Shown: piece after piece, positions 5,731 through 36,386 of the stretch
Position numbering within the stretch: position 1 is the stretch's first letter
Layout: every line of letters begins with the position of its first letter
Assembly (NCBI GenBank): GCA_963989385.1
Contig: OZ022502.1
Span: forward strand, 47,485,454-47,549,453
Source of the DNA: Ctena decussata
Lineage: Eukaryota > Mollusca > Bivalvia > Lucinida > Lucinidae
Direction: 5' to 3'
Length of the DNA: 64,000 nucleotides
The notes under the pieces: model-generated
Told to the model about the DNA's origin: nothing
Databases searched by the model: none
The model's input: only the letters and a program-made list of their open reading frames with translations
Program-made: the position numbers and the translations under genes

Positions 5731-6007
5731 TGTTGGTTGGTTGGTTGATTTGATGCTTAACGTCCACGGTAAACAACTAAGGTCATGTCGGGACGGTCAG
5801 TTAACCTAACTACACTATTCCTGGGCAGGCTTAGACCTCCTAAGCGGTTAACCAGTACTAAGTGCACTTACTTTCGCCAGTAACTGACAACTGCCCTTCT
5901 TGAACCAGCGGAAGGAGAAACGAAAGTATGTGGCCAGACCGGGATTCGAACCCAGGACCTCTGACTTACGAGTCAGGTGCCCTACCGATTGCGCTACCCG
6001 GCCCGGC
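5731..6007 (-). mobile_element. tRNA-headed SINE, complete, 277 bp
   Basis: Flanked by the 12-bp direct repeat AATGACATTTGT (5719-5730 and 6008-6019), the mark of LINE-driven insertion. The 5' end on the minus strand is a tRNA-like head at about 5932-6003, with a pairable 7-bp acceptor stem, A box TAGCGCAATCGG and B box GGGTTCGAATCCC. The anticodon arm has an extra base, so it is a tRNA-derived promoter and not a working tRNA. The 3' end is GGACGTTAAGC followed by an AACC-type tail. Confidence 0.8.
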
Positions 6008-8621: not shown

Positions 8622-8993
8622 CGATTCTTACGCTCAGAACCGCCGAAAAAATAGTCTTTTCATTCAAAGTCTCCCAACCTTCCTGCCAGCACTTTCATGC
8701 TCCCGCCAATATTCTTAAATGTATCTAAGTATATGTACGTTTTTATGGTGATTTTAGAAAGAAAAAAGAGACGTTACCAAAACGTCACAAAATGACGTCG
8801 GTAATGCAAGTGACGTCAGCAATTAAACTCACGCGCTCAGAAACAGTGAACTGTTGCAGAATAAAACACGGAAACTTTCCACTGCTTCTACAGGCACATT
8901 GTGTTAGAATTGTTCATGTATTATCAATCTAGCAGCTTGGTTGGTAAGACATGGGGCATAATTGATACAGTTATAAAGGACAAAACAAATTAT

Positions 8994-9148
8994 TGTCACA
9001 GGGTATAGGTTAGGTATAAACTACACTTGTACTGCCTTGCGGTACAAGCCGGCTTTTATAGCGACGTGGTAGAGTGCGAGACTTTAGAACGAAAGGTCCC
9101 GGGTTCGATCCTCGGCCCGGGCGTGAGATTTTTTAAGAGTCCGTGACA
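8994..9148 (+). repeat. TRIM 5' LTR
   Basis: 155 bp, TGTCACAGGG to GTGACA. It contains a GTATAAA box at 9014-9020, a 7-bp hairpin CTTGTAC/GTACAAG (9026-9032, 9042-9048), a tRNA-like region, and a T6 run at 9129-9134. Confidence 0.88.
9059..9134 (+). ncRNA. tRNA-like Pol III unit in 5' LTR
   Basis: A box TAGCGACGTGG at 9059-9069 (consensus TRGCNNAGTGG, one mismatch), B box GGTTCGATCCT at 9102-9112, and a T6 terminator at 9129-9134. The T arm CCGGG-TTCGATC-CTCGG pairs. An anticodon-like arm ACTTT-AGAACGA-AAGGT also pairs, but has G at position 33. The 5' side of the acceptor stem does not match the 3' CCCGGGC, so a functional tRNA is unlikely. Pol III promoter activity is the inference. Confidence 0.65.
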
Positions 9149-9150
9149 AA

Positions 9151-9163
9151 TGGCGCCCAACGT
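9151..9163 (+). promoter_or_regulatory. TRIM primer-binding site, tRNA-Lys(CUU)
   Basis: TGGCGCCCAACGT is exactly complementary to the last 13 bases (including CCA) of the conserved eukaryotic tRNA-Lys(CUU). It sits 2 bases inside the 5' LTR, where minus-strand DNA synthesis is primed. Confidence 0.85.
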
Positions 9164-9250
9164 AAATGACCCATATGTGCATTAGAACTCCTTAAGTCTC
9201 ATTTCCAGTGATTCTTGTAACTCCTTAGAATTCGAGGACGAATTCAATAT

Positions 9251-9262
9251 GGAGGGGGAGAA
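9251..9262 (+). promoter_or_regulatory. TRIM polypurine tract
   Basis: GGAGGGGGAGAA abuts the 3' LTR, the position of the plus-strand primer in LTR retrotransposons. Confidence 0.8.
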
Positions 9263-9417
9263 TGTCACAGGGTATAGGTTAGGTATAAACTACACTTGTA
9301 CTGCCTTGCGGTACAAGCCGGCTTTTATAGCGACGTGGTAGAGTGCGAGACTTTAGAACGAAAGGTCCCGGGTTCGATCCTCGGCCCGGGCGTGAGATTT
9401 TTTAAGAGTCCGTGACA
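9263..9417 (+). repeat. TRIM 3' LTR
   Basis: Appears identical to the 5' LTR over 155 bases. Its A box is at 9328-9338, B box at 9371-9381 and T6 at 9398-9403. Confidence 0.88.
9328..9403 (+). ncRNA. tRNA-like Pol III unit in 3' LTR
   Basis: Same sequence as the unit in the 5' LTR, 269 bases downstream. Confidence 0.65.
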
Positions 9418-9539
9418 TTATGGCGGTATTCCAACTTGCACATAACTTCGAAAAGCTGTCATTTCGATGTTAGTACAATGCTTTTGATGGTGTGTGCCTT
9501 GTGGAAACTTTTCTGGGTAACCTTCAGACCTACAAATTT

Positions 9540-21749: not shown

Positions 21750-22531
21750 TGTCAGGGGTTTTAACTGAGCGTCTCTGCTATTACAGACGTTCCCAGCCCT
21801 CGCAGGTTCTCACAATATCAAAGGAAGCCTGCAATATATTATATAAATATATTGAGAATGAAACAATACAAGTAAATATTGAGAACAACAGTTCACAATG
21901 ACGTTTCTAATGTAAATGCCATGAAATACAAACATGTGTCATATAAGAACAAACAAGATAAATGTAAACAGTATATGGATGGATGTATAACTTCATACAT
22001 CATGAATGAATTGGGTATTCCTAGCTATTCCACCTTGCTGACGTCACACGTCGACTACACACGCCTATGCATATGACTGATTATGGAACGATAAAAAGAG
22101 CAAAATATTCCAAGTTCGTTATATGCTAAAAGCATCGTTTTAGCATACAGGAACGTAGAATAATGAAAGCATGAAACAAAGATGATAAACTAACATACCT
22201 GCAATATATTATATAAATATATTGAGAATGAAACAATACAAGTAAATATTGAGAACAACAGTTCACAATGACGTTTCTAATGTAAATGCAATGAACCGTT
22301 GAAGTCATGAATATTTGTTAGCGCTGTGTGAATAGGTTAATCACTGTACACTAACCTGTACGTCTAACTACCTACTTGTATGCTAGAACTAAAACGAAGG
22401 CAATGTGTTAACGAACGCGACATGGTTTAACGGACCTCGGCATTGGATAAAGTGTATAGGAAATATAGGATATAGGGAAATGAAATGAAACAAACAAAAA
22501 TTAACTTTCACTCTTATTATACCCTGTGACA
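21750..22531 (-). repeat. gypsy 3' LTR
   Basis: 782 bp, the same as the 5' LTR by eye. The internal direct repeats are at 21828-21919 and 22198-22289, about 370 bases apart, both containing ATATTATATAAATATATTGA. Confidence 0.93.
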
Positions 22532-22546
22532 TATTTCCCCGCCTTG
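22532..22546 (-). promoter_or_regulatory. gypsy polypurine tract
   Basis: In the sense direction, AAGGCGGGGAAATA directly precedes the 3' LTR. Confidence 0.75.
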
Positions 22547-23423
22547 AAGAAGGTCGTCCTCGACATTCCAAACACATGCCACGGTATGCAAGTATGTAAA
22601 TGTGGGTAATGTAAATGTAATGTGAATGTGAAGATGTTGTGATGTAATGTTATTCTGGTATAAACCCAGAAAATGCAGCAAGATATGTTACTGGCCTCGA
22701 AAACAACAAATCACAAAACCCACGCTGGCTACCAACTTGCCCGAGTTTAGGATGCCTGACTTCTCAGACCAAACAATGTCAAGAAAGCAATTGCTAAATC
22801 TTGCTGATCTGAAATGAGGAAATAATGAAATAAACAATGAAAGTATATCTGCGTGTGCTTCCAGCTCCTACTCAAAATCCTTCTTGATGAACAAACGCAA
22901 ATCTCTGTACACACCTGCAAAATGTCAAAGGTGTTGGTTAATGGTAAAGATATCTCCACGAATGTGGACTTAAAATTAGTAAGAAGTGAAAAGGTTACTC
23001 ACCTTCTTATCTGCCCCTATATACCTACAAAATCCAAAGAATCTTAAAGTGATCAGATTAATCACTATTTTTATACTAGGTACAGCACAGGCTAACATTT
23101 TATTTATTAGATAAGTTCAACGAACTATCTGACATGAAAGCTTCTGTGCTTATGAGTACTGAGTATTTGGTCATCTGAATAACCTCTATAGTTACGTCTA
23201 TACGTACATAGGGGTCAGCCCTCTGATAGCAACACACTAGAACGCAGATATGATCGAAGTGAAATGATGAATTCAATGAGGAGTTAAATGATGAATGAAA
23301 GTAAGCTTATTTCATACTACAATATGGAATGACTCTACATATGATGATCTACAAAGATATGGCTTTTAAAATTATTTACAACTGATCTTGACTTCTAGTT
23401 ACACTCTGGTCTCCTACTTCCCA
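22547..23423 (-). other. gypsy 3' region, non-coding
   Basis: Between the end of pol and the purine tract. Small frames only; no env-like protein. Confidence 0.7.
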
Positions 23424-26400
23424 TCAAAGATGTGTCATGTTACTGCCACCAATAGAAACTAAGTGCGGCTGAGACAGAACCCACTCGTTGGAATTCATCC
23501 AACCTGGTTTCCGTTTTGCTCGGGATGGTCGTGCTGTGCGCTCACCAGACTCTGTATCTGAGTCAGTCCTAGATCTTGGACTCAAACCAGGAGTTCCACG
23601 TGCACGGCGCTGTGGTATAACATAGCGTTCGACCTGTTCTGTCTCATTTGCATCAGTCGATCCTGGTGTAGTCTCTTGGTCCATCTGATGCGACCGATCG
23701 GCTGTCGGTACTGAGACAGGTACCTCATCGGTATGGGCGTCAGATACTGGTGGCCCATCTGCACTTAGAGCAGTACCCAACCGGGGAGCCCCCTCTGTGA
23801 CACGGGCGTTTCTTTGTGGCAATCCCATGAACGGAAGCAAGAGATTCCTATGTAACGTCCTGATCTTTCTAGACCGAGAGTTCTCCAACTTTACGTTGTA
23901 CACTGGAATATCTGGATTGGGCTGCGATAGGATAATATATGGCTGTCTTTCCCATCGATCGGCTAATTTCTGTTTACCTCGCAAGCCGACGTTTTTGACG
24001 AGGACACGATCTCCGGGGTAAAGAGCGCCAGGGCTCCTGACTTTCAGGTCGTAGTACCTTTTATGCTGGGCAGTGCTACGCCTTGCAGCTTGTTGAGCTG
24101 TTTTATATGCATAGGCGAGCCTCTCTCTGAGCTTTCTGATGTATTCCGTCTGATTGGCAGCGGACAATGTGTCTGGAGACAATCCAAGAAAGGCATCTAT
24201 TGCCAACCTTGGATGTCTGCCGAACATCAGAAAGAATGGAGAATATCCAGTAGTGTCATGGAAGGTGGCATTATACGCATGCACCAGAGTTGGTACATGC
24301 GCCTTCCAATCACTCTTTTGATATTCTTCTAGAGTGCCCAACATCTTCAGGAGCGTCTGGTTGAAACGCTCACACTGTCCATTCCCCATCGGATGGAAGG
24401 GTGTTGTCCTAGATTTCTCAACTCCAGCAATGTTCGACTCGAAGGTCTGACCTTGATCACTATGTAACCTTGCTGGAAATCCATAGTGAACTATGAAATT
24501 GTCGAACAACACCCTGGCTGTCGTTCGAGCCGTCTGGTTTTTCGTGGGGATGGCTTGTGCATAGCGTGAGAAATGGTCGGTGATGACCAGTATATTCTCT
24601 ACGCCTCCCTTCGATCGTTCGAGGGAAAGATAATCAAGACAGACGATTTTCATTGGCGCAGATGAGACAATGTTCACCAGGTTGGCATTTCGCTGTTGAC
24701 GTGTCTTCCGTAGAATACAGCGATCACATTGTCTCACTTTCTCCTGAATGTAGGAGTCCATAGCTGGCCAATAGAACCTCTGCTTGATTAGAAAAGTTGT
24801 GCGGTCTCTACCTTGGTGACCGAGATCATCGTGGAAAGCACGGAAAACAACTTCTCTAAATGCCATAGGAAGTACAAGCTGCTGGAATTCTTGCCCATTC
24901 AACTGAATCTTGCGGTAAAGTACATCATGCAACATGAAAAGACGATGCGAATCCTTGAAGTATCGGCGATCCACCGTTGAACTACACAGGGTTTGCGGAG
25001 CAAGAACCCTTGTACCTGCCTCCAAATGATCTATGATACATTTCAAGGTAGTATCGTTTCTTTGTGCCTTGCGCCAGTCTTTAGAAGACAAAGCATGAGA
25101 TAAAAGCTCATCCGGAATATTGTCCGTTGCAGGCACATTGTTTGACAATGATATACTTTCCACAAGAGGGCTAGAAACTGTGGCAGACTGGCATATGGCT
25201 TTCAACACCTCTGGGAATATTACTTCCTCTCCAGATTTTTCATCCCTTCTGGAGAGTCCATCAGCGTCGGCATTGTTACGCCCAGACCTGTACTTTATAC
25301 AGAAGTTGTAAGCGGAAAGAGCAGCTACCCATCTCTGCCCTGTGGCATCCAACTTGGCGGTCGTGAAAATGTAAGTGAGGGGATTATTGTCTGTGACGGC
25401 CTCAAACTTACTCCCATAGAGATAATCGTGGAATTTTTCCACAACCGCCCACTTGAGTGCCAAAAACTCAAGTTTGTGTGCTGGGTAGTTCTTTTCCGCT
25501 AATTTTAGACTTCTGCTTGCGTACGCTACTACCCTCTTCTTGCCTTCTTGTTCTTGGTAAAGAACAGCTCCAAGTCCACTAGAGGAGGCGTCAGTATGAA
25601 GCTCAAAGGGAAGGCTGTAATTGGCGTACGCAAGTACAGGCGGGTTGGTGAGACTGCTGATGATGGTGTCGAAAGCCTGCTGTTGCTCTTCTCCCCAAGT
25701 GAATGGCGTTCCAGGCTCGCACTTCTTTTTCTTCGATTTTGATCCAGTTGGATGCCCAATCAACAGATCATTGAGCGGTCTGGCGATGGCGGCATACCCC
25801 TTGACAAAGCGACGGTAATAACCCGTAAATCCGAGAAATTTACGGACGTCTTTGGTGCACTGAGGAATAGGCCAAGACTTTACCGCTTCTATCTTCGAAG
25901 GATCTGCATGTATGCCCTCCCTTGAGACAACATGCCCAAGGTAAACCACTTGGCTTCGGAACAACTCGCATTTTGAGGGCTTCAGTTTTAGGCCATGCTC
26001 CTGCAGACGCTGAAAAACTGCTTGCTGTTTTTCGACATGTTCCTCAAAGGTTTTGGAGAAAATGACAATGTCGTCAAGGTAAATGAGGCAATCTCGAAGA
26101 TTGAGATCGCCCATGCACCTCTCCATAAGCCTTTTAAAGGTCGCAGGTGCATTGCAAAGCCCGAAAGGCATGCGGTTGCACTCGTAGAAGCCAAGTGGTC
26201 CAGCCTGGAATGCTGTCTTGGCTTTGTCCTCCTCCTTCAGCTCCACCTGCCAGTAGCCACTTTTAAGGTCCAATGTTGAAAAATACTTAGCGCCAGCTAG
26301 CAGGTGAAGTGTATCGTCAATCCGAGGGATGGCATAGGCGTCCTTAATAGTTCGCTGATTCAGCTTTCTGTAGTCAATACAGAACCTGATGCTGCCATCC

Positions 26401-27035
26401 TTCTTCCTGACGATCACGACGTTGGAGCTGAAGGGGCTCGCCGATTCCCTAATAGCACCTATCTGCAACATTTCGCGCAGGTGCTCACGGACTTCTTGAA
26501 TTAGGGAAGGAGGGATATGCCTGTATGGTTCCTTGAATGGCAAATCATTGTCAAGGTGTATCTCGTGGTAGACCGTTTTAGTATGACCAAGGTCCAAAGG
26601 TCCACTAGAGAAGATGTGCTGCCATCGCTTTAAGAATTCCCTGGTGTCCTTCTTCTGTCCCTCAGTAAGACAGGATTCTTCAAGGTCTATTTGGTCATAG
26701 GTCATATCTGGCTTGGTGTTAGCAGTTTGTTGATGTAACCCAGCAGAATTCGTAACTGCTACATCCGCTGACCTCAAAACGGTCACTTCCTTCAAGTGAG
26801 AAATTGGTGACTTCGCTGGTATTGTCACAGGCTTGGCGGACATATTAAAGAGTTTCACAGGAACTCTAGCTGAAGTGCCAGGTTTATTTAAAGTGATCAC
26901 CCTGGGACACACTGTCACTTTTGATGAGCCTTCTTCTGTTGATTCAGTCACGGCAGACTCAACATCACGGGTTTTCCTTGCAAAACCAGTGATAACCTTG
27001 CTTCCATAGGCTGCAGTATGACACTGTGGGTTGTT
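23424..27035 (-). CDS. gypsy pol: RT, RNase H, integrase
   Basis: Open from 27035. Counting from a GTG at 26951 gives 1175 residues; that GTG is a convenience, since no ATG start is evident. Reverse transcriptase ~175-350, with catalytic Asp in LDLKSGYW (~228) and YLDD (291-294). RNase H has HTDAS (Asp ~454), LEFLALKW (Glu ~495) and VTDNNP (Asp ~521). The integrase zinc finger is H707, H712, C742, C745. Its catalytic Asp are in LDYLS (~773) and SDQGQ (~832), and Glu in CERFN (~861). Only 28 residues separate the second Asp and Glu, against the usual 35. A C-terminal region (~960-1050) with RVLVKN and QPYIIL fits the GPY/F-type module. Overlapping short frames on both strands are not genes. 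Confidence 0.93.
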   Translation of the reverse strand, partial: NNPQCHTAAYGSKVITGFARKTRDVESAVTESTEEGSSKVTVCPRVITLNKPGTSARVPVKLFNMSAKPVTIPAKSPISHLKEVTVLRSADVAVTNSAGLHQQTANTKPDMTYDQIDLEESCLTEGQKKDTREFLKRWQHIFSSGPLDLGHTKTVYHEIHLDNDLPFKEPYRHIPPSLIQEVREHLREMLQIGAIRESASPFSSNVVIVRKKDGSIRFCIDYRKLNQRTIKDAYAIPRIDDTLHLLAGAKYFSTLDLKSGYWQVELKEEDKAKTAFQAGPLGFYECNRMPFGLCNAPATFKRLMERCMGDLNLRDCLIYLDDIVIFSKTFEEHVEKQQAVFQRLQEHGLKLKPSKCELFRSQVVYLGHVVSREGIHADPSKIEAVKSWPIPQCTKDVRKFLGFTGYYRRFVKGYAAIARPLNDLLIGHPTGSKSKKKKCEPGTPFTWGEEQQQAFDTIISSLTNPPVLAYANYSLPFELHTDASSSGLGAVLYQEQEGKKRVVAYASRSLKLAEKNYPAHKLEFLALKWAVVEKFHDYLYGSKFEAVTDNNPLTYIFTTAKLDATGQRWVAALSAYNFCIKYRSGRNNADADGLSRRDEKSGEEVIFPEVLKAICQSATVSSPLVESISLSNNVPATDNIPDELLSHALSSKDWRKAQRNDTTLKCIIDHLEAGTRVLAPQTLCSSTVDRRYFKDSHRLFMLHDVLYRKIQLNGQEFQQLVLPMAFREVVFRAFHDDLGHQGRDRTTFLIKQRFYWPAMDSYIQEKVRQCDRCILRKTRQQRNANLVNIVSSAPMKIVCLDYLSLERSKGGVENILVITDHFSRYAQAIPTKNQTARTTARVLFDNFIVHYGFPARLHSDQGQTFESNIAGVEKSRTTPFHPMGNGQCERFNQTLLKMLGTLEEYQKSDWKAHVPTLVHAYNATFHDTTGYSPFFLMFGRHPRLAIDAFLGLSPDTLSAANQTEYIRKLRERLAYAYKTAQQAARRSTAQHKRYYDLKVRSPGALYPGDRVLVKNVGLRGKQKLADRWERQPYIILSQPNPDIPVYNVKLENSRSRKIRTLHRNLLLPFMGLPQRNARVTEGAPRLGTALSADGPPVSDAHTDEVPVSVPTADRSHQMDQETTPGSTDANETEQVERYVIPQRRARGTPGLSPRSRTDSDTESGERTARPSRAKRKPGWMNSNEWVLSQPHLVSIGGSNMTHL

Positions 27036-27565
27036 TTAACAACACCAACTTGTGTGCTAGTCAGGGCGCTAAACGCTGTTTTCCAGCTAGCTGGGACTTC
27101 GCTTACTTCCTCGTCAATGTTGTGGAAGCGACTCAGTATGTTAGTCCCTGCAATAACAGGAACTGTCTTATTGTAGTCAGTCTGAGACACAATAAGCATT
27201 GGTATCAGCTCTGATTCCCCCTCAATAAAAGGGACAGATACTTCAGCTATAATATATCCCTTGTAGGGAACGGAATGTCCGCCAGCCGATCTAATATCCA
27301 GCTCGAAATCATCTAATGATCTTATTTCTGGCTTTGGATGTAGCTCTTCTAAACACTCCTCTGTGATTGTACTAATCTGTGACCCAGAATCTAACAATAC
27401 TTTTATATCTACATTATTGATGTTGATAATGCCTTCATTTCCCTTACCTATCATACGTTCTAGTATGTTACTATTAGGGCTTTTGCTGTTTTCTGTTTCG
27501 CCTCTAATCTGCCCCGCGATAGAGACGTTTATGCGTTTAAAGTTTCGTCTTTCTCTATTGGGGTC
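26948..27565 (-). CDS. gypsy aspartic protease
   Basis: The frame is open from 27565. Its first ATG is at 27454, giving 168 residues, but entry by -1 frameshift from gag is more likely. The retropepsin active-site motif LLDSGSQ has its catalytic Asp about residue 22 from that ATG. VPVIAGTNIL toward the C-terminus is where the second conserved Gly-containing strand of the fold is expected. The enzyme would cut the gag-pol polyprotein. The frame ends in TGA at 26950-26948, overlapping the start of the next open frame. RT lies in a third frame, another -1 step. Confidence 0.88.
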   Translation of the reverse strand, partial: DPNRERRNFKRINVSIAGQIRGETENSKSPNSNILERMIGKGNEGIININNVDIKVLLDSGSQISTITEECLEELHPKPEIRSLDDFELDIRSAGGHSVPYKGYIIAEVSVPFIEGESELIPMLIVSQTDYNKTVPVIAGTNILSRFHNIDEEVSEVPASWKTAFSALTSTQVGVVKTTHSVILQPMEARLSLVLQGKPVMLSLP

Positions 27566-28875
27566 TTAACTTCTGTATTTTGAATTTGATTTGGCTGATT
27601 AACGCCAGTATTATTTCCGCCTCTGTTACTTCCATATCTTCCTCTATAATTTGATCTTCTGGGATTTCTATTGGAAAATTGCATTGTCTTTTTCATTCCT
27701 TTTACATCTTTAGCTAAGTCTATTAAAAGCTGAGTGTTGGAATCTTGTTGAACTTGATGTTGTTGGAGCCCAACTTTTACTGTGTCATCTTGCTCTTCTG
27801 CTGTCTCTACTTTCATGCTCTTTACTTCTGACCTTTTATCTTTTACTCCGAATCTTTTTTCCTGAGACATCTCATATTCTTCAGCCCTTATCTTCCTTCT
27901 CAATGTTTCAAAATTTATTTTGTCTGATACAAAATAAACGTGAGTGGCATTCTTAAGGTCAGTTCTATACAGACCACGCCAGAACTTATTTCTCAACATG
28001 TTTTCCTTCTGCTCTTTTGTCACATGACCCTTTTCTCTAGCTTTCTCAAAAATTTCTTCCAGACGTATTCCCCACAATGTTGTGCTCTCACTAGGCTTTT
28101 GATAAGCATTATAAAATTCTTGGACTATACTTTCTCCACTGGCAACATTGCCAAACACACTCTCGAGCTTTTCTATAATCTCTGCTGTAGTAACGTTCGG
28201 TCTCAAAGTATTAACTACCTTTCTTGCATGCCCTCGCAATGAATTTCTTAGAGCTTGATTAATTATCAAGTCAGGATACGGACTTGAATTAATTAGATAT
28301 TTTGTTTCAAGCTTCCAGTCATCAAAGCTGACTTCCTTTTGGGGTACAGGATTAGCTCCCGAGAAACCGCTAATGAAAGGTTTTACTATGTGTGTAACTT
28401 CTTGTTTTGTTACAGCTTGAGCTTCTATCTTTTTCGCATCTTCTTTAGTATCTCCTGTCTTCAACATGTGCTCTGCAACTGTGGTTATATTCTGTTCTTC
28501 ACTCTTTATGTCTGATATAGGGTCTAAGTGTAATTTTCCTCGTATCTCGTTCTCTTTCCTGTTTAATTCTTCTTCTAATTGCTTTAAATATCTTTCCTTT
28601 TTCTGTAATTCCTCTTCTCGTTCTGTATTAGACTTTGAGTCCATATTGAGCTTAGAATTGGGTTCTGTTTTATCTTGACACTGTATTGTCTCCTTTAAAT
28701 CAGTGTTTCCTCTACTCTCTGTATCAGGTTTTTTCATACGGTTTGCATGGGGTTCCGTTTTATTCTCTTTGTCAAACTCTATGGTCCCCTTTTGTTCAGG
28801 GTCTAATTCTCTTTTCTGAACTGAATAAGAGTCAGTTTCCAATTCACATTGCTTCTTCGCGTCTGTATCAGGCTG
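27529..28875 (-). CDS. gypsy gag, capsid part
   Basis: In frame with the upstream part across one TAA; no nearby ATG starts it, so readthrough or mutation is implied. Roughly the first 150 residues are polar with coiled-coil character. A capsid-like domain follows, beginning near PFISGFSGANPVPQ and running through SFDDWKLETKYLI, SLRGHARKV, LESVFGNV, and LRNKFWRGL. This pattern resembles Ty3/gypsy gag and the PNMA proteins derived from such gags. The C-terminus is Arg/Gly/Asn-rich (RRSNYRGRYGSNRGG), likely the RNA-binding nucleocapsid, without a CCHC knuckle. The last codons contain the T TTA AAC slippery site, 6 bases before the end of the stop codon. Confidence 0.88.
   Translation of the reverse strand, partial: QPDTDAKKQCELETDSYSVQKRELDPEQKGTIEFDKENKTEPHANRMKKPDTESRGNTDLKETIQCQDKTEPNSKLNMDSKSNTEREEELQKKERYLKQLEEELNRKENEIRGKLHLDPISDIKSEEQNITTVAEHMLKTGDTKEDAKKIEAQAVTKQEVTHIVKPFISGFSGANPVPQKEVSFDDWKLETKYLINSSPYPDLIINQALRNSLRGHARKVVNTLRPNVTTAEIIEKLESVFGNVASGESIVQEFYNAYQKPSESTTLWGIRLEEIFEKAREKGHVTKEQKENMLRNKFWRGLYRTDLKNATHVYFVSDKINFETLRRKIRAEEYEMSQEKRFGVKDKRSEVKSMKVETAEEQDDTVKVGLQQHQVQQDSNTQLLIDLAKDVKGMKKTMQFSNRNPRRSNYRGRYGSNRGGNNTGVNQPNQIQNTEVKTPIEKDETLNA
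27535..27541 (-). promoter_or_regulatory. -1 frameshift slippery site T TTA AAC
   Basis: Reading minus, gag codons ACT TTA AAC give the canonical heptamer in the zero frame, followed by GCA TAA. A 7-base spacer then leads to the stem CGTCTCT/AGAGGCG (7 bp, one G-U) around a 15-base loop. A -1 slip enters the protease frame, open from 27565. The loop GGGGC could pair with GCCCT downstream as a pseudoknot. Confidence 0.8.
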
Positions 28876-30063
28876 TTACTCCATTTGCCGTTCTGAGAAG
28901 AATTCGTTTCCTAATCTATCTTGTGATCTCTCTCCTGTTTTAAGCTGTGGAAGTGTAGTAAGTTCCGGGTAGATTTCTTTTCCACATCTTAACCTCAGCT
29001 GCCTTTCATCTTCTTCCATCTCTCTCTTTAGTAATGCTTCTTGTTTATAAAGCATATCAAGTCGCTGCTTTTGCTTTACTTCTTCATCTCTTCTCTGTTC
29101 AAGTTGCCTTTCCAACTTCTCTTCTTCTTGCTTCATCAATAAGAACTTATGTTGTCTTTCGATCTGGTTATTAAATTGTGTCCGCCTAGCGTCCATCATT
29201 CTTATCTTCTCTTTTAGCTGGCTTTCTTCTGATATTCTCTCTTGACTCCTCCTTGCTATTTGTTCAGCCTGAGATTGTAATGCTTTAATTCTGTTCATTA
29301 TTTGCGAGTCATCGTACTCATCCTCCTCGGCCTCTTGTAAACTACCTGCTTCCAAAATTGTTATATCTTGTCCTGGTAGAGAATCTATATCTTGAATAAC
29401 TGTCCTTGCAATTGGAATGTTAACTTTCTGCTCCTGAAAGGAAAAACTATCTACAAATGGCTTTTGTTCCTGAAAGGCAGTTCTGTCTCTTCTATCTCCA
29501 AACTCTTTCTGTTCCTGAAAAGAAATTGTATCTCTTCTATCTCCAAATACCCTTGGAGTAGAATGCCTCACTATCTGCTCCGGAAAGATAGGGCGGTTTT
29601 CATATCTTACTTTCGCCTGCGTATTATCAGGCAAAGATTCTTCATCTTCTCTGTCTACTATCTGTTTGTACGCCGGGGTACTAAACCTCTTCTTGAGAAT
29701 ACTCTTTGGAGCTGTAGGCAAGCTTTCTTCCGGCATTCTTAGGAACGATGGTGTCGGAATTGACACTTTACTTGTGACAGGGGTCTCCCAAAAACTTAAT
29801 CTTTCTACTGGATCACTTGGTTGCATATACTCTTCTGTGTCTGTACCATCTAAGGTCACAAATCGGTCAGGTCCTAAATCCAGGGTCAAATCATGTTGTA
29901 TTTGTCTCGCTGTCCTATCCCTTATTTCCCTGTCTAAACTCTCACGTAGTCTTTCAAGATCCATTCTTCGTTCATCTAATTCTCTCTGCATTTGTCTTTC
30001 ATCTCTTTCTTGTGCTCGCCTATCTCTATCTTTTCGCTGTCTCTCCCTAGCATTGGTTTCCAT
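28876..30063 (-). CDS. gypsy gag, N-terminal part (395 aa)
   Basis: Starts at a true ATG and ends at TAA (28878-28876). The protein is highly charged, rich in Glu, Arg and Gln. Residues ~1-60 and ~265-365 have heptad-like coiled-coil character. In the middle, around residues 170-215, three short repeats end in SFQEQK or AFQEQK. No zinc knuckle or capsid signature is visible here. The next frame (27529-28875) is in the same reading frame and directly follows the stop, so the two look like one gag polyprotein interrupted by a single TAA. The role as a structural assembly segment is inferred from position and coiled coils. No close family recognised. Confidence 0.8.
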   Translation of the reverse strand: METNARERQRKDRDRRAQERDERQMQRELDERRMDLERLRESLDREIRDRTARQIQHDLTLDLGPDRFVTLDGTDTEEYMQPSDPVERLSFWETPVTSKVSIPTPSFLRMPEESLPTAPKSILKKRFSTPAYKQIVDREDEESLPDNTQAKVRYENRPIFPEQIVRHSTPRVFGDRRDTISFQEQKEFGDRRDRTAFQEQKPFVDSFSFQEQKVNIPIARTVIQDIDSLPGQDITILEAGSLQEAEEDEYDDSQIMNRIKALQSQAEQIARRSQERISEESQLKEKIRMMDARRTQFNNQIERQHKFLLMKQEEEKLERQLEQRRDEEVKQKQRLDMLYKQEALLKREMEEDERQLRLRCGKEIYPELTTLPQLKTGERSQDRLGNEFFSERQME

Positions 30064-31587
30064 AGTTCTTCTGTTCTGTTAATTCCCTTCTTATAGTTAT
30101 TAAGCTGAAACTAAATAGCAGTTTGTTTTGATCCGAACTGTAAAACGGATTTCGTATCTAACTACTCTTTAAATCTCGTATCCTATATTATAACCTAACA
30201 CAGAAGTGCGCTAACCTAACACAAAAGTGTGCTAGTCAATAAAAAATGCGTTTCAGCTTCAAGAAATATTCTAAGGTTTGTGCAGACAGTAATTTGCCTC
30301 CGGCATTTAACTGATCTTCATACAAGAATGAACCTTAACTGACACATACACACATGTTCTATTAATTAGTGTTCTCTTTCTGACCAATTTTAAACTTAAT
30401 CTTAATTCAGCACCGTACCACTCACTTATGGCCGTACCACTATACCAACAGTGATTTCAAACTTAAATTCCTACGCCGTACTACCTTCCTACCTGTTAAA
30501 GATTCCTACTCAGTACTATCTTCCTACCTGGTACCGATTTCTAATTCGTACTATCTCCCTACCAGTTAATGAAACGTACTCAAAACAACACTTCAGATCA
30601 GAACGTTCACTACCTGTCGAGTTTCTACTACTGCTCTTCCGACCGACTTCACGAAGTAAATAATGCAAAAATTCGCATTTTGTTCCGCAGTAAATACAAC
30701 ATAGAGTACTCAACTATAGTCCTATGTTATAGTTTGTTCCTCCGTGATTCACGTATAACTGCCCCGGTCCATAAAACAACCGACACACAAAACAACAAAA
30801 CAACCGGTAACCTTCAAAACAGTGACTACAACACAGGAAAATAAACTATTCCAATAGTATGGTATCCTGTGATTTACGTGAATCACTTTAACTTAGGCCC
30901 TTGGCATATTTTTAATTTTATCACAGAAGCGCAGTGTAGACCCAACTTACCATGTAGTTAACTGCAATAACTTACCTTGTGCAGTATATCTTGCTATCTT
31001 TTTTTTCTTTTTAATTTGCTGATTTATGCACAAATGTTTATGCTGTGATATGCACGCAAAAACAATATTTTGTGGCAATCAGCTCATTCGCGCATATTGC
31101 CGCGTACTGTACTATGTACAGTGTTTTTCAGTTGCTGTGGTCACAAAATATCTGTCAAAATGTGCGCAAATGTAAGCGATCACAAAAAAATCGATTTGAG
31201 AAAATGACACGATAGGAACGCAATGCTGTTTAGAAGACCGACGAAGAAAATATGAATTTGGCAATGAACAATTATTTTCTTGAACGGATATTTCCTTCCA
31301 AGAAAACAGATTTTCAAAGCAAAGAACTTCTACACATACATGTATGATCTGTGTATCCGCGTTTGCAATACTGAATACTGTAGCGTTTGCATAATCCTTG
31401 TCATTGAAAACAAAGATTTGTTTTCTGTCACAAGATCATTGGATTGACTTTAGGTGTATGTTTGGTTTATTGATTGTTAATTAAAAGTTTTAATTAACAG
31501 AGCAGTGGATGCATAACGAAAAAAAAATGTGAACATATATATTGGTTTCTTCTCAAAGAAAGAGAAAAAAAAAAATATTTAAACTAG

Positions 31588-31665
31588 TGAGCCTCGAACC
31601 TACACGAGACAGTCAATACTGGGTTGTAAGCGTTGATGCCTGCTCACTGCGCTAGCGAACCTTTA
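31588..31665 (-). repeat. tRNA-like sequence in gypsy leader
   Basis: On the minus strand, CTAGCGCAGTGAGCAG resembles an A box and GTAGGTTCGAGGCTC a B box, at normal tRNA spacing. The stems pair poorly. It may be a SINE relic or part of the element. Confidence 0.4.
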
Positions 31666-32808
31666 CTACCCTAGTGGGGTTTTTATTTGGTATATAAACC
31701 TAATTCACGGACAGGTGCGACGGCCTCTCGCTTCAAATGTAAGAACCGAAAATATTTGCGCAGAAAACTATTTTTGCAGTTTTACAGCTTAAATACGCAT
31801 CTCAACTGAAGAATTCTTAGGCAAGTGTTAAAGTATTGCATTTTGGATACGATTGGGCGTATATGGAAGCGGAACATGGAGTTAGCCGAGGATAGCTGGA
31901 TTAAGTAATTGGGAGTGAAATGACAAGGGGTGTGGCTAAATGTCACGCTACGCCTGATCAGAGTTTACACTGGGCGGGGGTAGAGGGAACACAGGAGTGT
32001 ATAGGACATGATAAACCCTTGAAGAACTCTGCACTATACTAAATCTACTGTTTTGGGTTAGTACGTTAGCAAATGACAGATGACAAAAGATGATCGCTGC
32101 ATATGAAGGTGTAATGACCCATATATATACACAGAATGTAAACAGACGTGGTCAAGGTTGATATATATGTGTATTGCTGTGTAGTTTTGAAGTATAGATT
32201 TATTCAGACAATCGGGTGGACTGTACGAAGAAATCTATCGATTTTTCAACCATGAACACGTGTGTGTACATACATAACACTCAAATACATGATAAATGAA
32301 GGATTACTATCATCATATGGAGTATAATGGACCAAATAGACACTGTACAGATGATATACATGAGGAAACAGTAAACATTGAGTACCTATGTCAATAACCA
32401 GGTAATACCTATGTCGGACAAGATATGCTTTGCAAGGTGGAATAGTAATATAAGGTCTTACCTTAATCAAACCCGATTCCATCCATCCTTAACTAATGAA
32501 TCACAATCACAAAGTTTATGTACACAGTTTATATGCTATAATCCATATTCAATACACGGATTGCAGACAACGTCACTCACACGCGATCTTGAGAGATGTT
32601 CCTGTTCTTTTGAAAACGAATCAGTTCTACTGGTCGCAGTCAATGTCACAAGAAGTCGTGGGCCCACTAAATAAATATTGATGCACGTGCTGGTGTAAAT
32701 AAACACAAGGAGTTCCGGTTTGAAATCAGTGACGTCAGAAGAAGGTCAGCTGGCCGGCGATCCGCATACATGAGATGTTCCATTCATCATGGCTGCCGAA
32801 AGTTGATA

Positions 32809-32826
32809 TGTGCTCACTGGCCACCA
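32809..32826 (-). promoter_or_regulatory. candidate gypsy primer-binding site
   Basis: TGGTGGCCAGTGAGCACA begins 3 bases inside the 5' LTR in the sense direction, the right place for a primer site. I could not match it to a specific tRNA. Confidence 0.45.
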
Positions 32827-32829
32827 ATT

Positions 32830-33611
32830 TGTCAGGGGTTTTAACTGAGCGTCTCTGCTATTACAGACGTTCCCAGCCCTCGCAGGTTCTCACAATATCA
32901 AAGGAAGCCTGCAATATATTATATAAATATATTGAGAATGAAACAATACAAGTAAATATTGAGAACAACAGTTCACAATGACGTTTCTAATGTAAATGCC
33001 ATGAAATACAAACATGTGTCATATAAGAACAAACAAGATAAATGTAAACAGTATATGGATGGATGTATAACTTCATACATCATGAATGAATTGGGTATTC
33101 CTAGCTATTCCACCTTGCTGACGTCACACGTCGACTACACACGCCTATGCATATGACTGATTATGGAACGATAAAAAGAGCAAAATATTCCAAGTTCGTT
33201 ATATGCTAAAAGCATCGTTTTAGCATACAGGAACGTAGAATAATGAAAGCATGAAACAAAGATGATAAACTAACATACCTGCAATATATTATATAAATAT
33301 ATTGAGAATGAAACAATACAAGTAAATATTGAGAACAACAGTTCACAATGACGTTTCTAATGTAAATGCAATGAACCGTTGAAGTCATGAATATTTGTTA
33401 GCGCTGTGTGAATAGGTTAATCACTGTACACTAACCTGTACGTCTAACTACCTACTTGTATGCTAGAACTAAAACGAAGGCAATGTGTTAACGAACGCGA
33501 CATGGTTTAACGGACCTCGGCATTGGATAAAGTGTATAGGAAATATAGGATATAGGGAAATGAAATGAAACAAACAAAAATTAACTTTCACTCTTATTAT
33601 ACCCTGTGACA
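32830..33611 (-). repeat. gypsy 5' LTR
   Basis: 782 bp. In the sense direction it starts TGTCACAGGGTATAATAAG, which includes a TATA-like box near the tip. It holds an internal ~92-bp direct repeat, as in the 3' LTR. Confidence 0.93.
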
Positions 33612-35454: not shown

Positions 35455-36386
35455 TGTTTGTGTGATTTGTCGCTTAACGTCCACGGTAAACAGCAATGGT
35501 CAATTCGGGACGGTCAGTTAACCTAACCACACTATTCCTGGGCAGGCTTAGACCTCCTACTCTCTTGTTGAGGCACTCCAGCAAGTGGTTTTTAGTGGAA
35601 CTTTTTTCTTTAAAGATGCTTAAATATCAAAATTTTAGGTTTAACATACCCAAAACCATTTCTGGTAGCTAAATACTGACTTGCAGCATATTGCATGACC
35701 TCTTTTGTCTATTTTTATCATTTTTTGTTTTGAGGTGGGTTTTCCAATAGTAAAAATATTCCTTCTGGTTTCCAGCATTTGATGAGGTTCATTTTAATTT
35801 TAATAAAGCTGGGAACCACCCATTGTGACATCACAACAGAAATGATGTCATCACTAATGACCTGATCTGTTTTGGAATATGACCATTTCAGCAAAGGGTT
35901 GTTTGCAGTGTCAGCTACACTTATGCATCTTTTTGTTTTCCAAAAAGATATTACTTATGAAAATAAATGCTATAAGATATAAGCATGAATTCTTCTGAAA
36001 TGATTTCATGTTAATTTTATATGAAATGGTAATTTTCAAGAATGTGCTTGAAACATGCCACCCCTACAACAATAATGGTTATCTTGAGGCGGCCATTATG
36101 AAACTGAAAAAAATACATTGCAAGAGATTACTTTCCAAGCTTGAGAGCATGCCAATGAATTTCAAAAACTCTACTGGACAAATCTGACTACGAGAAATGG
36201 TAGTAAACTGAACCATGTAAGTGGAATTTGCTGTTTCTTTATCCTTTAAGTATAAACTTCGAAAAACCACTTGCTGGAGTGCCTCAACAAGAGAGTAAGC
36301 GGTTAACCAGTACTAAGACCGGGTTTCGAACCCAGGGCCTCTGACTTATGAGTCAAGTGCCCTACCGATTGCGTAACACGGCCCGT
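35455..36386 (-). mobile_element. tRNA-headed SINE split by a transposon
   Basis: The outer parts match the complete SINE at 5731-6007: 35461-35559 is its tail half (CTTAACGTCCACGGTAAACA..GACCTCCTA) and 36296-36386 its head (GGTTCGAAACCCGGTC B box on the minus strand, CATAA anticodon-like loop). Between them lies the miniature transposon. This copy also lacks part of the SINE body. Confidence 0.8.
35560..36295. mobile_element. 736-bp TA-flanked miniature transposon
   Basis: Perfect 34-bp terminal inverted repeats (35560-35593, 36262-36295) start CTCTCTTGTTGAGGCACTCC. TA is duplicated at each side (35558-35559, 36296-36297). The uninterrupted SINE at 5731-6007 reads CCTCCTAAGCGG, so one TA was duplicated. 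Fits a Tc1/mariner-type non-autonomous element by target site; no transposase inside. Confidence 0.85.

What the first reader, a model, noticed from the sequence alone, without database searches (positions are those of the whole stretch)
8994..9417. Miniature LTR retrotransposon with a tRNA-like Pol III unit in each LTR
Seen: 155-bp LTRs that match by eye, tRNA-Lys primer site, purine tract, 4-bp duplication, no coding capacity. Inside each LTR are A box, B box and a T6 stop in order and at tRNA-like spacing. Known: plant Cassandra TRIMs carry a 5S rRNA promoter in the LTR. A tRNA-type equivalent in an animal would be a parallel solution that I do not recognise as described. Inference: Pol III may drive expression, although T6 would end the transcript before the LTR end, so full-length RNA would need readthrough or Pol II (a GTATAAA box is also present).
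Basis: partly seen in the sequence, partly recalled or inferred. Interest (0 to 1): 0.92.

Follow-up and report, generated by a model that had tools for sequence, protein, structure and literature searches.

The report
tRNA-promoter mini-retrotransposon in a clam
A tiny clam jumping gene carries a copy of a tRNA-type promoter at both ends; such elements were named in 2024, but this one sits in a new host lineage and its broken copies seem to record where its RNA starts and which tRNA primes its copying.

Summary
Window 8994-9417 is a complete 424-bp TRIM: two identical 155-bp LTRs, tRNA-Lys-type PBS, PPT, 4-bp TSD TTAT, and in each LTR a degenerate tRNA-like unit followed by T6.

The kind is already described: TRIMs with a tRNA-like LTR are "Helenus" (Kojima 2024), including 51 families in pteriomorph bivalves. 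The host here is the lucinid Ctena decussata, absent from that paper's host table.

What is added: aberrant copies that look like fossil reverse-transcription intermediates. Nine of 11 head-to-head LTR pairs share one centre, placing a cDNA stop at about LTR base 55, 11 nt upstream of the A box. Of 12 loci fetched with an extended PBS, 10 carry the 18-nt tRNA-Lys copy (four of them ambiguous), absent from 58 ordinary copies; one holds a whole tRNA-Lys(CUU). One copy is a hybrid of two such families.

This supports Pol III initiation without proving it. Verdict: new member of a known kind, with evidence on mechanism.

The parts
8990..8993 (.). TSD TTAT, left
8994..9148 (+). 5' LTR, 155 bp, ends TGTCAC...GTGACA
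9015..9020 (+). TATAAA, LTR 22-27; TATAA kept in 75 of 82 LTR copies, TATAAA in 44 of 82
9026..9048 (+). 10-bp-stem hairpin CTTGTACTGC-CTT-GCGGTACAAG, LTR 33-55, least variable of the LTR stretches compared
9048..9048 (+). inferred RNA 5' end (LTR 55) from fold-back copies
   Evidence: inference
9059..9069 (+). A-box-like TAGCGACGTGG
9102..9111 (+). B box GGTTCGATCC
9129..9134 (+). T6, possible Pol III terminator
9149..9262 (+). 114-bp internal region, no ORF of 120 aa or more
9151..9163 (+). PBS TGGCGCCCAACGT, tRNA-Lys type
9251..9262 (+). polypurine tract GGAGGGGGAGAA
9263..9417 (+). 3' LTR, identical to the 5' LTR
9328..9338 (+). A-box-like sequence of the 3' LTR
9371..9380 (+). B box of the 3' LTR
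9398..9403 (+). T6 of the 3' LTR
9418..9421 (.). TSD TTAT, right
21750..33611 (-). Ty3-type element with identical LTRs (33611-32830, 22531-21750), gag/protease/pol ORFs; shares the first 14 LTR bases and a similar PPT region with the TRIM but has another PBS

Best explanation
The feature is a young Helenus-type TRIM, a non-coding LTR retrotransposon whose LTR carries a tRNA-derived Pol III promoter. Most likely TFIIIC and TFIIIB, on the A and B boxes and perhaps the TATA at about -33, start RNA at about LTR base 55. A minority of transcripts reads through the first T6, crosses PBS, internal part and PPT, and stops at T6 of the 3' LTR. That gives U3 = 1-54, R = 55 to about 140, U5 = about 14 nt. 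A tRNA-Lys(CUU) primes the minus strand. Proteins of a Ty3/gypsy element copy the RNA and integrate it with 4-bp TSDs. Shown: anatomy, dispersed copies, TSDs, tRNA-derived unit, tRNA-Lys sequence joined to this LTR in aberrant products, a common fold-back centre. Inferred: Pol III use, readthrough, exact RNA ends, identity of the helper.
For: Exact 4-bp TSD in 25 of 39 copies chosen by whole-element match and 9 of 20 chosen by the internal region alone; all 20 of those carry this LTR on at least one side. Regex counts: PBS in 35 of 39 loci, PPT in 36 of 39. tRNA ancestry, 0 of 500 shuffles. A T run of 5 or more after the B box in 82 of 82 LTRs and 118 of 120. Pattern TGACANNTGGCGCCCAACGTGGG, which extends three bases beyond the element's own 13-nt PBS, has 38 genomic matches against 0 for the same pattern read backwards. 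Twelve of the 38 were fetched: 11 have this LTR directly upstream (all but L118). The pattern fixes 16 nt; 10 of 12 go on to the full 18 nt TGGCGCCCAACGTGGGGC; of these L120, L125 and L126 run further into tRNA-Lys sequence and seven leave at 18. L126 holds a whole tRNA-Lys(ctt) by ARAGORN. 0 of 58 ordinary PBS copies have GTGGG. Nine fold-back palindromes at six loci (L069, L111, L112 x2, L120 x2, L121 x2, L125; duplicates L066 and L117 removed) are all centred between LTR 57 and 58, in GCCGGC 55-60; in L120 and L125 one arm continues into tRNA-Lys sequence. L083 begins at LTR 54/55.
Against: No RNA data. A Pol II start set by TATAAA would fall at nearly the same base, and a cDNA stop at 55 could be pausing at the hairpin that ends there. 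Two further head-to-head pairs have other centres (L118 at 23.5, L113 at 27), and other 5' breakpoints lie elsewhere: L080 at 44, L118 at 10, 19, 22 and 29, L113 at 51. Four of the ten 18-nt loci (L117, L119, L121, L128) run into GCCA of a head-to-head second element, so their last bases could also come from that joint; L122 resumes the TRIM interior and could be an older PBS variant; the 18-nt and fold-back sets overlap in loci. The A box lacks its conserved A. The box-versus-rest conservation difference is weak (p = 0.04). Only 4 of 12 internal 3' breakpoints fall at LTR 137-140, and two of those are in complex loci. T6 should end most Pol III transcripts early. No autonomous partner sharing PBS, PPT and LTR ends was found.
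Confidence: 0.7

Rival explanations
1. A TRIM transcribed by Pol II from the TATA box; the tRNA-like unit is a captured SINE or tRNA relic that now serves only as R sequence.
For: TATAA about 33 bp upstream of the inferred start, kept in 75 of 82 LTRs; A-box defect; T6 would block full-length Pol III RNA.
Against: No AATAAA or ATTAAA in any of 82 LTRs, though the window's Ty3 LTR lacks them too; T run kept; 4 of 12 internal 3' breakpoints in T6.
Confidence: 0.22
2. The breakpoint at LTR 55 marks a pausing or recombination hot spot at the hairpin 33-55 and the palindrome GCCGGC, not the RNA 5' end.
For: The hairpin is strong (-12.3 kcal/mol, z -4.9) and ends exactly at base 55; GCCGGC is self-complementary.
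Against: Promoter geometry independently places the start near 55; L083 shows a plain truncation at 54/55.
Confidence: 0.3
3. A tandem tRNA-SINE unit, not an LTR element.
For: Tandem three-LTR arrays exist (L027, L028, L079).
Against: Most of the 59 copies examined are LTR-internal-LTR; PBS, PPT and 4-bp TSDs are common.
Confidence: 0.01

Closest known systems
Helenus TRIMs (Kojima 2024, PMC10886601)
   Same: TRIM size, tRNA-derived LTR unit with A and B boxes that is mostly not a functional tRNA, PBS, PPT, 4-bp TSDs in animals, tRNA-Lys primer among bivalve families, solo LTRs; tandem arrays reported for one fish family.
   Different: Host is a lucinid (Heteroconchia); the paper's table lists bivalve hosts only in Pteriomorphia. 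The A box here reads TAGCG, where most Helenus have TRGCY. Sequence relation to published Helenus families could not be tested.
Cassandra TRIMs (plants)
   Same: Small-RNA-gene promoter inside the LTR of a TRIM; tandem arrays (PMC7215508, passages).
   Different: Cassandra has a 5S rRNA unit; here the unit is tRNA-derived.
biv-TRIM (Satovic 2019, PMC6934838)
   Same: Bivalve TRIM, including Heterodonta hosts; similar PPT (GGGGAGA); tandem copies.
   Different: 202-218 bp repeats, 77-80 bp internal part, no clear PBS and, in most species, a conserved TGATCCCAAAGGAC segment; here 155 bp, 114 bp, clear PBS, no such segment.
Ty3/gypsy element at 21750-33611 of the window
   Same: First 14 LTR bases, similar PPT region (42 of 54, E 1e-6), 4-bp TSD.
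   Different: 782-bp LTR in which the TRIM LTR matches only the first 14-15 bases, and a different PBS (TTGGTGGCCAGTGAG).

Membership tests
Helenus | TRIM: two LTRs, short, no proteins | tested here: met
   424 bp, LTRs 155/155 identical; no ORF of 120 aa or more
Helenus | tRNA-derived sequence with A and B boxes in the LTR | tested here: met
   63-column alignment to a tRNA, 0 of 500 shuffles; A box has 1 mismatch; Rfam tRNA model does not match
Helenus | PBS next to the 5' LTR and PPT next to the 3' LTR | tested here: met
Helenus | 4-bp TSD (animal Helenus) | tested here: met
   25 of 39 and 9 of 20 exact
Helenus | Mobilised by an autonomous Gypsy element | tested here: inconclusive
   LTR start and PPT region shared with a Ty3 element in the window, but its PBS differs
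Helenus | Sequence match to published Helenus families | not testable with these tools
   Repbase and the paper's supplement could not be searched
TRIMp3 (Pol III-driven TRIM) | Transcription by Pol III | not testable with these tools
   Only indirect: fold-back centre and T-run breakpoints
Cassandra | 5S rRNA sequence in the LTR | tested here: not met
   Only RF00005 elsewhere in the window reaches an Rfam threshold
biv-TRIM | 202-218 bp repeats, 77-80 bp inner domain, no clear PBS | tested here: not met
tRNA SINE | No LTRs, PBS or PPT | tested here: not met

The most novel reading that the evidence does not exclude
The Ctena genome holds integrated dead-end reverse-transcription products that read out the life cycle of a Pol III-driven animal TRIM: RNA from the Pol III start at LTR 55 to the T6 terminator, primed by tRNA-Lys(CUU). 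Several unrelated tRNA-promoter TRIM families are copied in the same particles and recombine: L116 is a hybrid with a different LTR at each end and one TSD. In one locus (L126) another element's U3 runs straight into a whole tRNA-Lys that is joined at its CCA end to this element's cDNA, which leaves open that a tRNA unit carried by one element can serve as primer for another.
Probability: 0.35. Interest if true: 0.7.

Novelty: new member of a known kind. Interest (0 to 1): 0.5.

Why it matters
Kojima stated that Pol III use by Helenus cannot be concluded without experimental validation. A young family in a sequenced clam, with breakpoints that predict one start base, one stop and one primer tRNA, makes that question directly testable. 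If it is related to the pteriomorph families, Helenus in bivalves is older than the pteriomorph ancestor or has moved between lineages; if not, it arose again.

Tried and rejected
Rejected: SINE reading (TSDs, PBS, PPT); functional tRNA (ARAGORN default and Rfam negative); biv-TRIM; the window's Ty3 as a full match (PBS differs). The first impression that L097, L105 and L106 show the same LTR on autonomous elements failed for L106, which is a TRIM interrupted by another repeat-bounded element (L115); in L097 (L114) the long pol-like ORF runs on the opposite strand to the LTR; L105 was not followed. Absence of AATAAA in the LTR does not separate Pol II from Pol III, since the Ty3 LTR lacks it too. 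A COI search for the host gave a 77% unnamed best hit, named hits all being at 68% or less among the 120 listed; assembly size and chromosome lengths settled it. Genome-wide counts of LTRs and palindromes failed: only first-look candidate numbers exist (1590 whole element, 1831 LTR, 760 internal), with 40 scored each.

Full report
What is there. The window lies on chromosome 5 of a 1.658-Gb assembly. The lengths of C1-C18 and a 53,285-bp mitochondrial contig match Ctena decussata xbCteDecu1.1 (PMC12485333, passages); the held copy has 245 contigs where the paper gives 260 scaffolds. Ctena is a lucinid in Heteroconchia. At 8994-9417 lies LTR (155 bp), 114 bp, LTR (155 bp); the LTRs are identical and flanked by TTAT. 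PBS TGGCGCCCAACGT follows the 5' LTR after two bases; GGAGGGGGAGAA precedes the 3' LTR.

The tRNA-like unit. A-box-like TAGCGACGTGG (one mismatch), B box GGTTCGATCC and T6 stand in order. The unit aligns to the tRNA at 5931-6003 over 63 columns with one gap, better than all 500 dinucleotide shuffles, but neither ARAGORN at default nor Rfam sees a tRNA. It is tRNA-derived promoter sequence and no longer a tRNA.

The family. A whole-element search listed 44 matches from 40 scored of 1590 candidates. The non-window full-length rows were covered by 39 fetched loci: 25 have exact 4-bp TSDs, 3 have 3 bp, 11 none, complex loci such as L036 and L040 counted as none. The PBS regex is present in 35 and the PPT regex in 36 of 39. 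Of the 40 rows of an internal-region search (760 candidates), 25 were new and 20 of them were fetched: all 20 carry this LTR on at least one side and 9 have exact TSDs. An LTR search (1831 candidates) led to 19 further loci: two are solo LTRs with TSD (L095, L103), one (L098) is a solo LTR without; the others are complete, interrupted or rearranged. Tandem three-LTR arrays occur (L027, L028, L079).

Conservation. In 120 LTR copies deviations per site are 0.9% in the A box, 2.0% in the B box and 3.6% in bases 78-104 (the anticodon-arm region); boxes against the rest of the unit p = 0.04. The least variable stretch compared is LTR 33-55 (0.36% against 2.8%, p = 3e-5), which folds as a 10-bp hairpin (z -4.9). 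These tests ignore shared ancestry of copies, so they are indicative only.

Fossil intermediates. A pattern with the LTR end plus a PBS longer than the element's own (GTGGG in place of GTAAA) found 38 places against 0 for the backward control. Twelve were examined: 11 have this LTR directly upstream, L118 does not. The pattern fixes 16 nt of the tRNA end; L124 and L127 leave after 16 and 17 nt, seven (L117, L118, L119, L121, L122, L123, L128) after exactly 18, and L120, L125 and L126 continue into tRNA-Lys sequence; L126 contains a whole tRNA-Lys(ctt). Ordinary copies do not have it (0 of 58). The natural reading is that reverse transcriptase copied the primer tRNA, 18 nt being the usual length of that copy (recalled). 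Two cautions: in L117, L119, L121 and L128 the next bases are GCCA of a head-to-head second element, so the last few bases could belong to that joint; and L122, whose interior resumes, could be an older variant with a longer PBS.

Fold-backs. Leaving out duplicate loci (L066 = L069, L117 = L112), there are 11 head-to-head LTR pairs in the fetched loci. Nine, at six loci (L069, L111, L112 twice, L120 twice, L121 twice, L125), centre between bases 57 and 58; L118 has one at 23.5 and L113 one at 27, both in rearranged loci. In L120 and L125 an arm runs into tRNA-Lys sequence. This fits minus-strand strong-stop DNA ending at GCCGGC, so that the RNA would start at G55. L083 begins at 54/55. Other 5' breakpoints are L080 at 44, L113 at 51 (its junction has a short overlap with 51-55) and several in L118; L123 has lost part of U3 and matches from 50. 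Base 55 is 11 nt upstream of the A box and about 33 nt downstream of TATAAA, so it suits Pol III and also a TATA-driven Pol II start. Of 12 internal 3' breakpoints, 4 fall at 137-140, in the T run; two of the four (L113, L118) lie in complex loci and L099 could be aligned otherwise.

Hybrids and helpers. In L116 the 5' LTR is this family's, while PBS, internal part, PPT and 3' LTR are another's; that 3' LTR also has a B box and T7. The TSD is CATT, and a repeat copy in the same locus shows the empty site. L123 contains other LTR-like stretches with tRNA-like units (ARAGORN: two tRNA-Thr). In L127 the second LTR is followed by TTTGGTGGCCAGTGTGGG, close to the PBS of the window's Ty3. That Ty3 (21750-33611) has PNMA-type gag, protease, RT, RNase H and integrase matches, some of them below the Pfam cut-off, and shares the LTR start and PPT region with the TRIM. 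L101 has this LTR followed by AATTGGTGG and what looks like gag-type coding sequence (judged by eye), perhaps a recombinant with such an element.

Literature. Helenus (PMC10886601): text parts 1-4 of 6 and the figure/table section read, passages. It reports 51 families in five pteriomorph orders and gives no heteroconch host in Table 1. A search for papers with at least two of Helenus, TRIMp3 and Kojima, 2024 on, returned three: that paper, a meeting report (passages) and an insect checklist (listing only); I saw no lucinid in them, and the library holds only open-licence papers. A search on tRNA-like, TRIM, LTR and A box and one on tRNA-derived LTRs in molluscs were seen as listings. biv-TRIM, PMC6934838: abstract, passages and section 5. 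Cassandra: passages of PMC10853983 and PMC7215508. Bivalve TE survey PMC10294476: passages, in which TRIMs occur only in a reference title. A search for fossil strong-stop products gave nine papers, seen as listing only, none with a title on this subject.

Verdict. The element is real and young, and it belongs to a known kind. The host lineage is new relative to the paper read, and the aberrant copies give testable predictions on start, stop and primer. Pol III transcription itself remains inferred.

Noticed in passing
21750-33611 (-): Full-length Ty3/gypsy element with identical 782-bp LTRs, TATA TSD, separate PNMA-type gag, protease and pol ORFs.
   Followed up: partly
9026-9048 and 9295-9317: 10-bp hairpin just upstream of the inferred RNA start is the least variable LTR stretch compared; function unexplained.
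   Followed up: partly
L116:67-489 (reverse complement): Hybrid TRIM with LTRs of two different tRNA-promoter families, one TSD, and an empty site in a nearby repeat copy.
   Followed up: partly
L126:1442-1516: Whole tRNA-Lys(ctt) between another element's PPT/U3 and this element's U5, joined at the tRNA's CCA end.
   Followed up: partly
L123:1551-1624 and 1785-1858: LTR-like stretches with tRNA-Thr-like units: possibly other Helenus-type families in the same genome.
   Followed up: no
5931-6003 (-) and 36316-36385: tRNA gene or tRNA-SINE head; the two stretches are 90% identical over 70 bp.
   Followed up: no
L048 (contig C245, 53,285 bp): Unusually large mitochondrial contig; a cox2-like stretch of 338 codons between stops.
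   Followed up: no
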